Positions 3,395 through 4,029 of a DNA stretch of 64,000 nucleotides are shown piece after piece (position 1 is the stretch's first letter; every line of letters starts with the position of its first letter). The position numbers were made by a program, and so were the translations under genes. The notes under the pieces were generated by a model. That model was given only the letters and a program-made list of their open reading frames with translations. It made no database searches and was not told the DNA's origin. Origin of the DNA: Vulcanimicrobiota bacterium (GTDB taxonomy: Bacteria; Vulcanimicrobiota; Vulcanimicrobiia; Vulcanimicrobiales; Vulcanimicrobiaceae); the NCBI GenBank assembly GCA_027459645.1, contig DAIDHQ010000042.1, forward strand, positions 1 through 64,000, in the 5' to 3' direction.

Positions 3395-3413
3395 GCGTTG
3401 CGGCCGCGACGGT

Positions 3414-3466
3414 GTCATCCTGAGCGGAGCGGTTTCGCGAAGCGAAACCTGCGTAGACGAAGGACC
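3414..3466 (+). repeat. Palindromic repeat, left outer copy (ggtttcgc-GAA-gcgaaacc hairpin)
   Basis: gtcatcctgagcggagcggtttcgcgaagcgaaacctgcgtagacgaaggacc; 51/53 match to reverse complement of 3945-3997. Confidence 0.95.
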
Positions 3467-3493
3467 GGAACGCCGCGTGCCGCTTGCGACGGT

Positions 3494-3537
3494 GTCATCC
3501 TGAGCGGAGCGCCCGAAGGGCGCGTAGACGAAGGACC
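3494..3537 (+). repeat. Palindromic repeat, left inner copy (gcgccc-GAA-gggcgc hairpin)
   Basis: gtcatcctgagcggagcgcccgaagggcgcgtagacgaaggacc; same flanks as the outer copy, different perfect stem. Confidence 0.95.
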
Positions 3538-3558
3538 GCGTCGTCGCAGTAGCAACAC

Positions 3559-3864
3559 GTGAAGACGTATTTCGTATATATTCTCAAGTGTAGCGACGGT
3601 TCGTTCTATATAGGCGTAACCAACGATCTCGACCGCCGGCTCGTCGAGCATGAACTCGGACTTCTGCCGGGCGCATTCACCCACGAGCGCCGTCCCGTGC
3701 GACTCGTTTACCGGGAGACCTTCTTTGACATCGAACACGCTATCGCGTGGGAAAAGCGCGTCAAAGGCTGGTCGCGCAAGAAGAAGATTGCTCTAATAAT
3801 GGGGGATGCCGAGAAGATTCACGAGCATGTTAGGGACGATCGACGCTCTCGTTCACGGCGGTAG
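3559..3864 (+). CDS. Small GIY-YIG nuclease domain protein (UPF0213/YhbQ-like), flanked by inverted repeat pairs
   Basis: MKTYFVYILKCSDGSFYIGVTNDLDRRLVEHELG...; VYI..YIG motif with downstream Arg; 101 aa. Confidence 0.9.
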   Translation: MKTYFVYILKCSDGSFYIGVTNDLDRRLVEHELGLLPGAFTHERRPVRLVYRETFFDIEHAIAWEKRVKGWSRKKKIALIMGDAEKIHEHVRDDRRSRSRR

Positions 3865-3866
3865 CC

Positions 3867-3918
3867 GTCCTTCGTCTACGCTGGCTTCGCTTCGCGAAGC
3901 CGCTCCGCTCAGGATGAC
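3867..3918 (-). repeat. Palindromic repeat, right inner copy (ggcttcgc-GAA-gcgaagcc hairpin)
   Basis: Reverse complement gtcatcctgagcggagcggcttcgcgaagcgaagccagcgtagacgaaggac. Confidence 0.95.
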
Positions 3919-3944
3919 ACTGTCGCACGCGGCACGCTCGTTGC

Positions 3945-3997
3945 GATCCTTCGTCTGCGCAGGTTTCGCTTCGCGAAACCGCTCCGCTCAGGATGAC
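3945..3997 (-). repeat. Palindromic repeat, right outer copy
   Basis: Reverse complement gtcatcctgagcggagcggtttcgcgaagcgaaacctgcgcagacgaaggatc. Confidence 0.95.
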
Positions 3998-4006
3998 AAT
4001 GTGCCG

Positions 4007-4023
4007 CGCTCCCTCAGGACGAC
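4007..4023 (-). repeat. Degenerate half copy of the same repeat
   Basis: Reverse complement gtcgtcctgagggagcg resembles gtcatcctgagcggagcg. Confidence 0.5.
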
Positions 4024-4029
4024 GCGGTG

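What the first reader, a model, noticed from the sequence alone, without database searches (positions are those of the whole stretch)
3411..4025. GIY-YIG nuclease gene enclosed by inverted pairs of palindromic repeats: candidate REP-type mobile system not based on a transposase
Seen directly: the 101-aa GIY-YIG gene (3559-3864) has two same-orientation repeat copies on its left (3414-3466, 3494-3537) and two inverted copies on its right (3867-3918, 3945-3997). The outer copies match at 51 of 53 positions. The 26-27 nt spacers between paired copies also resemble each other in inverted orientation (left ggaacgccgcgtgccgcttgcgacggt; right reverse complement gcaacgagcgtgccgcgtgcgacagt). The whole therefore looks like a roughly 600-bp unit with about 125-bp inverted arms. 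Established parallel: RAYT transposases in enterobacteria and pseudomonads are flanked by inverted REP sequences and linked to REP/REPIN dispersal. Inference: the GIY-YIG protein may recognise or nick the hairpin and mobilise the family, with dispersed copies elsewhere in the window as its non-autonomous products.
Basis: partly seen in the sequence, partly recalled or inferred. Interest (0 to 1): 0.9.

Follow-up and report, generated by a model that had tools for sequence, protein, structure and literature searches.

The report
Nuclease gene enclosed by its repeats
A small GIY-YIG DNA nuclease gene sits between inverted copies of a hairpin repeat scattered about 150 times through this bacterium's genome, and the same pairing recurs in many phyla, including the TGTC/CGTC-tagged repeats that were published as having no dedicated enzyme.

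Summary
A 101-aa GIY-YIG gene (3559-3864) lies between two forward and two inverted repeat copies; the outer copies match at 51 of 53 positions. The linkage is general. In the host's family, 42 of 45 homologous loci have flanking inverted repeats above shuffled controls. In 80 loci from many phyla the repeat core is about 80 times denser within 300 bp of the gene than beyond 1 kb. Genomes with the gene carry a median of 131 core matches, those without 21 (p about 1e-10). The repeat is a 5' TGTC(A) tag plus a hairpin; its two variable base pairs covary (193 of 223 copies). This resembles the published CGTC/TGTC REP superfamily, which "apparently lack[s] a dedicated transposase" (PMC3733652). 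I find GIY-YIG genes flanked by classical CGTC repeats in Neisseria (dRS3), Azospirillum, rhizobia and Aeromonas. Best reading: a single-strand nuclease of the recently described Ssn type (from memory, paper not held) with its cognate REP repeats. Sister-genome sites show no repeat and no gene, repeat only, or repeat plus gene, with the gene flipped once. Nuclease-driven mobilisation is plausible but not shown.

The parts
3559..3864 (+). GIY-YIG nuclease gene (101 aa, GTG start), Ssn-like / COG2827-type
   Evidence: PF01541 E = 6e-15; 557 homologues found, the best 120 listed are all small PF01541 proteins and the 38 aligned share 17 invariant residues; pN far below pS against the sister genome
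3413..3466 (+). repeat copy A: 5' TGTC tag, outer stem TCCT..AGGA with CTGAG/CGAAG motif, inner hairpin GGTTTCGCGAAGCGAAACC
   Evidence: genome-wide family
3493..3537 (+). repeat copy B, same tag and outer stem, different inner hairpin (CGCCCGAAGGGCG)
3867..3919 (-). repeat copy C, inverted
3945..3998 (-). repeat copy D, inverted; 51/53 identical to copy A
3394..3545 (.). left arm (copy A + spacer + copy B)
3864..3998 (.). right arm (copy C + spacer + copy D), 85% match to the inverted left arm
52523..52565 (-). dispersed repeat copy inside the coding frame of a 2-oxoglutarate dehydrogenase E2-E1 fusion, in an inter-domain linker
51500..51520 (+). degenerate dispersed core copy in the same gene

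Best explanation
This is an enzyme-plus-substrate system: a small GIY-YIG nuclease of the Ssn type and its cognate TGTC-tagged REP repeats. When a repeat is single-stranded (replication forks, incoming transforming or conjugating DNA), one strand folds into a hairpin with an unpaired 5' TGTC tag and a stem A-NN-CT-[GA.GA]-G. The nuclease recognises tag plus hairpin and cuts there. Cutting would act on single-stranded DNA at repeats, feeding or limiting recombination between copies; this would account for the local inversions, the gene's relocations and, possibly, spread of the repeats. Shown here: the gene-repeat linkage across phyla, the covarying stem, the match of repeat class to nuclease clade, purifying selection on the nuclease, and site polymorphism. 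Inferred: cleavage, strand and cut position, and the biological purpose.
For: Linkage in the host family: 42/45 loci have flanking inverted repeats above the shuffled 99% level, left copies almost always (+) and right copies (-); both small GIY-YIG genes of the window's own genome are flanked. Across phyla: core density 6.66/kb within 300 bp against 0.082/kb beyond 1 kb, 55 of 71 loci on both sides, reversed-motif control 0. Genome level: 42 gene-positive genomes median 131.5 core matches against 21 in 54 negatives, p = 8e-11; the difference holds within the family alone, p = 3e-8. Three gene-positive genomes with low counts belong to one genus; the two whose flanks could be read carry a variant repeat (GTCATCCCGAGTAG or GTCACCCCGAGTAG) that the pattern missed. 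Hairpin: NN/N'N' complementary in 193/223 copies, 104/131 per-locus types against a shuffled maximum of 28. Named records: flanking CGTC/CCTC/TGTC repeats in Neisseria, Azospirillum lipoferum, Rhizobium, Sinorhizobium, Shinella, Aeromonas and Methylobacterium; none at B. subtilis yazA or the Listeria homologue. Nucleases with perfect-stem CGTC repeats form one supported clade (96/92).
Against: No biochemical evidence for this protein. The Ssn precedent is from memory; the paper is not held. Several gene-negative genomes are repeat-rich (G097: 237 matches at 97% completeness; G082, G091, G092), so repeats persist without a detectable gene. One homologue (Sphingomonas paeninsulae, with an in-frame stop) has no repeats. 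The tandem G.A stem is inferred from sequence; standard folding software does not model it.
Confidence: 0.8

Rival explanations
1. A selfish REP-type mobile system: the GIY-YIG nuclease nicks the hairpins and actively disperses repeats and, rarely, its own gene, as RAYT transposases are proposed to do for GTAG REPs. (This can be true together with the best explanation; the confidence is for active dispersal.)
For: Gene presence predicts repeat number; repeats occur as outward-tag pairs, some with a spacer shared between sister species; the gene occupies at least four sites in one genus; one orthologous site has neither repeat nor gene in G077, repeat only in G079, repeat plus gene in G076/G080/G078.
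Against: No dated insertion with target duplication or precise excision was found. GIY-YIG enzymes hydrolyse DNA and have no known strand-joining step (general knowledge), so a partner recombinase or repair would be needed. The gene is stably syntenic among close species.
Confidence: 0.4
2. Passive hitch-hiking: the gene simply sits in a repeat-rich recombination hotspot, and homologous recombination between repeats moves and flips it.
For: The gene is inverted between its flanking repeats in G078 relative to G076/G080, and a neighbouring cytochrome gene is inverted too; sites with repeats but no gene exist.
Against: Does not explain why this gene family is flanked in phylum after phylum with uniform +/- orientation while related YazA-type genes are not, nor why repeat class follows nuclease clade.
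Confidence: 0.1
3. The repeats are RNA elements (terminators or mRNA stabilisers) serving the gene, unrelated to the enzyme's substrate.
For: REPs commonly lie 3' of genes and can act as RNA hairpins (PMC3733652).
Against: Copies are on both sides of the gene in opposite orientation and about 150 are elsewhere; no Rfam family matches.
Confidence: 0.05

Closest known systems
Ssn, site-specific single-stranded nuclease family (GIY-YIG; N. meningitidis Ssn and its NTS repeats; recalled from memory, paper not held)
   Same: Small stand-alone GIY-YIG protein; cognate repeat in hundreds of copies; I find the Neisseria gonorrhoeae homologue flanked by CGTCATTCCC..GGGAATC (dRS3-type) repeats; the window protein is 41% identical to it
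   Different: Different phylum and nuclease clade; repeat has a CTGAG..CGAAG stem with inner variable hairpins instead of a perfect CGTC stem; cleavage untested
CGTC-tagged REP superfamily (Di Nocera et al. 2013, PMC3733652)
   Same: Unpaired 5' tag CGTC/TGTC/CCTC, stem starting with A(T), dimers; the paper equates Neisseria CGTC-1 with dRS3
   Different: Reported to lack a dedicated transposase; here a dedicated GIY-YIG nuclease gene is flanked by them
RAYT/TnpA-REP with GTAG REPs and REPINs
   Same: Enzyme gene flanked by inverted tagged palindromes that are dispersed in the genome
   Different: HUH tyrosine transposase against GIY-YIG hydrolase; GTAG against TGTC/CGTC tag
UPF0213 / YazA (PDB 1zg2, 1ywl)
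   Same: Same GIY-YIG family by sequence
   Different: YazA and the Listeria homologue have no flanking repeats

Membership tests
Ssn nuclease family | Stand-alone GIY-YIG domain homologous to Neisseria Ssn | tested here: met
   PF01541; 41% identity over 76 aa to the Neisseria gonorrhoeae homologue; that this homologue is Ssn itself rests on its dRS3-type flanks and on memory
Ssn nuclease family | Cognate repeat present in many genomic copies and near the gene | tested here: met
Ssn nuclease family | Site-specific cleavage of single-stranded DNA only | not testable with these tools
   needs biochemistry
CGTC/TGTC-tagged REPs | Unpaired CGTC/TGTC/CCTC tag at one end | tested here: met
   T precedes GTCA in 202/223 copies; the paper allows TGTC and CCTC
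CGTC/TGTC-tagged REPs | 8-9 bp stem beginning with complementary AT, loop 4-5 nt | tested here: inconclusive
   NN-CT..AG-N'N' stem covaries, but a GA/GA mismatch interrupts it, loops are 5-6 nt, the A-T first pair holds in only about half of the copies and the window's copies carry an inner hairpin
REP/RAYT system | HUH tyrosine transposase | tested here: not met
   enclosed gene is GIY-YIG
REP/RAYT system | Enzyme gene flanked by inverted tagged palindromes dispersed genome-wide | tested here: met
GIY-YIG homing endonuclease element | Gene interrupts its own recognition site or an intron/intein | tested here: inconclusive
   G079 has a single repeat where G078 has repeat-gene-inverted repeat, but intact repeats stay on both sides and no intron was looked for

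The most novel reading that the evidence does not exclude
The GIY-YIG (Ssn-type) nuclease is the long-missing dedicated enzyme of the whole CGTC/TGTC REP superfamily and drives the spread of these repeats by cutting tagged single-stranded hairpins: a REP mobility system with no transposase.
Probability: 0.35. Interest if true: 0.87.

Novelty: new variant of a known kind. Interest (0 to 1): 0.72.

Why it matters
REP repeats are among the commonest repeats in bacteria. For the CGTC half of them the literature held here records no associated enzyme (PMC3733652). Finding one nuclease family enclosed by such repeats from Neisseria to Eremiobacterota, with matching nuclease clade and repeat class, turns their origin and function into a testable biochemical question. 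It would also supply many natural sequence-and-structure-specific single-strand nucleases with their target written beside the gene.

Tried and rejected
Literature search for a published GIY-YIG/REP link in the held library: none found. A first generic repeat pattern was too strict and was replaced. Empty-site test at the window's own locus: inconclusive, because the sister genome lacks the neighbouring sensor-kinase orthologue; beside the 97%-identical HTH gene it has repeat pairs but no nuclease. Second gene copy after rho: in the sister genome rho is followed by neither repeats nor nuclease, but the host contig ends there. Swapped-flank null in the cross-phylum set was too lenient because unrelated phyla share the motif; replaced by near/far density. 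DNA folding software did not model the G.A-containing stem. Rfam: no match. I considered classical homing and a plain insertion sequence and set them aside: repeats stay intact on both sides and no transposase lies in the unit.

Full report
WHAT IS THERE. The window (contig 42 of a 3.14-Mb draft genome, 47 contigs; nearest named protein relatives are Candidatus Eremiobacterota) holds a 101-aa GIY-YIG ORF at 3559-3864 between a sensor kinase/phosphatase gene and a convergent HTH regulator gene. Two repeat copies precede it in forward orientation and two follow it inverted; the outer copies match at 51 of 53 positions.

REPEAT FAMILY. The 17-bp core occurs 85 times (up to 1 mismatch; control 0) in the genome and a degenerate 12-bp core 149 times (control 2). 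Dispersed BLAST matches stop mostly at single-copy boundaries. Among 31 clusters read from the fetched loci, singles, tandem copies and outward-tag pairs occur, and one spacer (CGCCTCAAGACAAACGC) is shared with pairs in the sister genome G001. Copies share TGTCATCCTGAGC...CGAAGGA but differ in an inner palindrome whose arms stay complementary.

A SHARED HAIRPIN ACROSS PHYLA. In 80 named genome loci chosen by protein only (Bacteroidota, Nitrospinota, Nitrospirota, Chloroflexota, Candidatus Peribacteria and others), the flanks carry GTCA-NN-CTGAG-(loop)-CGAAG-N'N'. NN and N'N' are complementary in 193 of 223 copies; of 131 per-locus types 104 are complementary against a shuffled mean of 13.3 and maximum of 28 in 10,000 shuffles. 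This is covariation of a stem. The fixed TGAG/CGAA part would form a tandem G.A pair step known from DNA hairpins and duplexes (general knowledge, inference here). It can form on one strand only, which would give the element a direction when single-stranded.

LINKAGE. Core density is 6.66/kb within 300 bp of the gene and 0.082/kb beyond 1 kb; 55 of 71 loci have it on both sides; a reversed-motif control gives 0. In the host family 42 of 45 loci exceed the 99% level of shuffled flanks, 36 exceed the shuffled maximum, and orientation is nearly always + left, - right. Over 96 genomes of the class, 42 with the gene have a median of 131.5 core matches and 54 without have 21 (p = 8e-11; within the family alone p = 3e-8). 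These p-values treat genomes as independent, which relatives are not. Exceptions: three gene-positive genomes of one genus have low counts, and the two whose flanks could be read carry a variant repeat; several gene-negative genomes are repeat-rich (G097, G091, G082, G092), best read as gene loss or assembly gaps, which I could not test.

NAMED RECORDS AND THE CGTC SUPERFAMILY. Di Nocera et al. 2013 (PMC3733652) divide REPs into GTAG repeats, tied to RAYT transposases, and CGTC repeats (tag often TGTC or CCTC, stem starting AT), which 'apparently lack a dedicated transposase'; Neisseria CGTC-1 is dRS3. In records of the plasmid collection (some look like mislabelled chromosomes) GIY-YIG genes are flanked by such repeats: Azospirillum lipoferum CGTCATCCCCGCGAAGGCGGGGATCCA in pairs on both sides; N. 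gonorrhoeae CGTCATTCCCGCGCAGGCGGGAATC on both sides; Rhizobium CIAT894, Neorhizobium, Shinella, Sphingobium, Novosphingobium, Aeromonas, S. meliloti (CCTC) and Methylobacterium (CCTC) likewise; Photobacterium and R. tumorigenes on one side. Of 18 such loci I count 15 two-sided (the Spirosoma one weak), 2 one-sided and 1 none. Bacillus subtilis yazA and the Listeria homologue have none. In a 41-protein tree the ten nucleases with perfect-stem CGTC repeats form one clade (96/92); the window protein and those with the CTGAG..CGAAG stem lie outside it. Repeat class and nuclease clade therefore change together.

SITE HISTORY. Among close species the gene stays in place (Chryseobacterium with Elizabethkingia; Flavobacterium). 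In one Eremiobacterota genus (g44) it occupies at least four different sites. At one site, between a dioxygenase-like gene and a cytochrome gene, G077 has neither repeats nor nuclease, G079 has a single repeat on that side, and G076, G080 and G078 have repeats plus nuclease. The nuclease gene is reversed in G078 relative to G076 and G080, and in those three the cytochrome gene is inverted relative to the other three: inversions across inverted repeats. At purD, G081 has gene plus right-hand repeats and G077 repeats only. Repeats can therefore be present without the gene; gene without repeats is rare. Purifying selection acts on the nuclease (for G076/G078, pS 0.42 and pN 0.05; for G000/G001, pS 0.82 and pN 0.18).

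MECHANISM. The most economical reading is an enzyme and its cognate hairpin. From memory, a 2025 report describes Ssn, a GIY-YIG family cutting single-stranded DNA at specific sequences, whose Neisseria member recognises a repeat (NTS) and modulates transformation; that paper was not available, so this is a lead and not a test. The direct sequence evidence (Neisseria homologue between dRS3-type repeats) fits it. Cleavage by the window's protein, the cut site and any role in spreading the repeats are untested. GIY-YIG enzymes hydrolyse DNA; to disperse repeats they would need repair or a partner recombinase. I put 0.8 on the nuclease-substrate pairing and about 0.4 on active dissemination.

NOVELTY. 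The kind (Ssn nuclease with repeats; enzyme gene enclosed by REPs) has precedents, so I call this a new variant. What seems unreported in the held literature is that GIY-YIG nucleases are the enzyme partner enclosed by CGTC/TGTC-tagged REPs across phyla; the Ssn report may already say part of this.

Noticed in passing
window 51500 and 52523-52565: Two repeat copies lie inside the coding frame of a 1475-aa 2-oxoglutarate dehydrogenase E2-E1 fusion, the second a full copy in the inter-domain linker (translated ..ALRASAQDDK..), reminiscent of rickettsial palindromic elements inserted in proteins.
   Followed up: partly
L031 end (own genome contig 22) and L037 1860-2494: In two genomes an insertion end starting ATACTGT interrupts the right-hand repeat beside the nuclease gene (after ..CTCAG in L031 and ..CAG in L037); in L037 the inserted gene matches PF02371 (IS116/IS110/IS902 transposase), so IS110-type elements may target these repeats.
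   Followed up: partly
alignment A1 C-termini, L031 1492-1827: Many homologues end by reading into the right-hand repeat (..HPSTSSG, ..PSTGSG), so the repeat supplies the end of the coding region.
   Followed up: no
L041 1220-1337 and 1782-1899; L067; L078: In several loci the two flanks also match over long stretches (118 nt in L041, where each side is a whole repeat pair; long direct-repeat scores in L067 and L078).
   Followed up: no
genomes G097, G091, G082, G092: Repeat-rich genomes without a detectable nuclease gene; relics or missed genes.
   Followed up: no
L250 (Planktothrix agardhii p1): The repeat-flanked GIY-YIG gene sits between a type IIL restriction enzyme gene and DISARM drmA, inside a defence cluster.
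   Followed up: no
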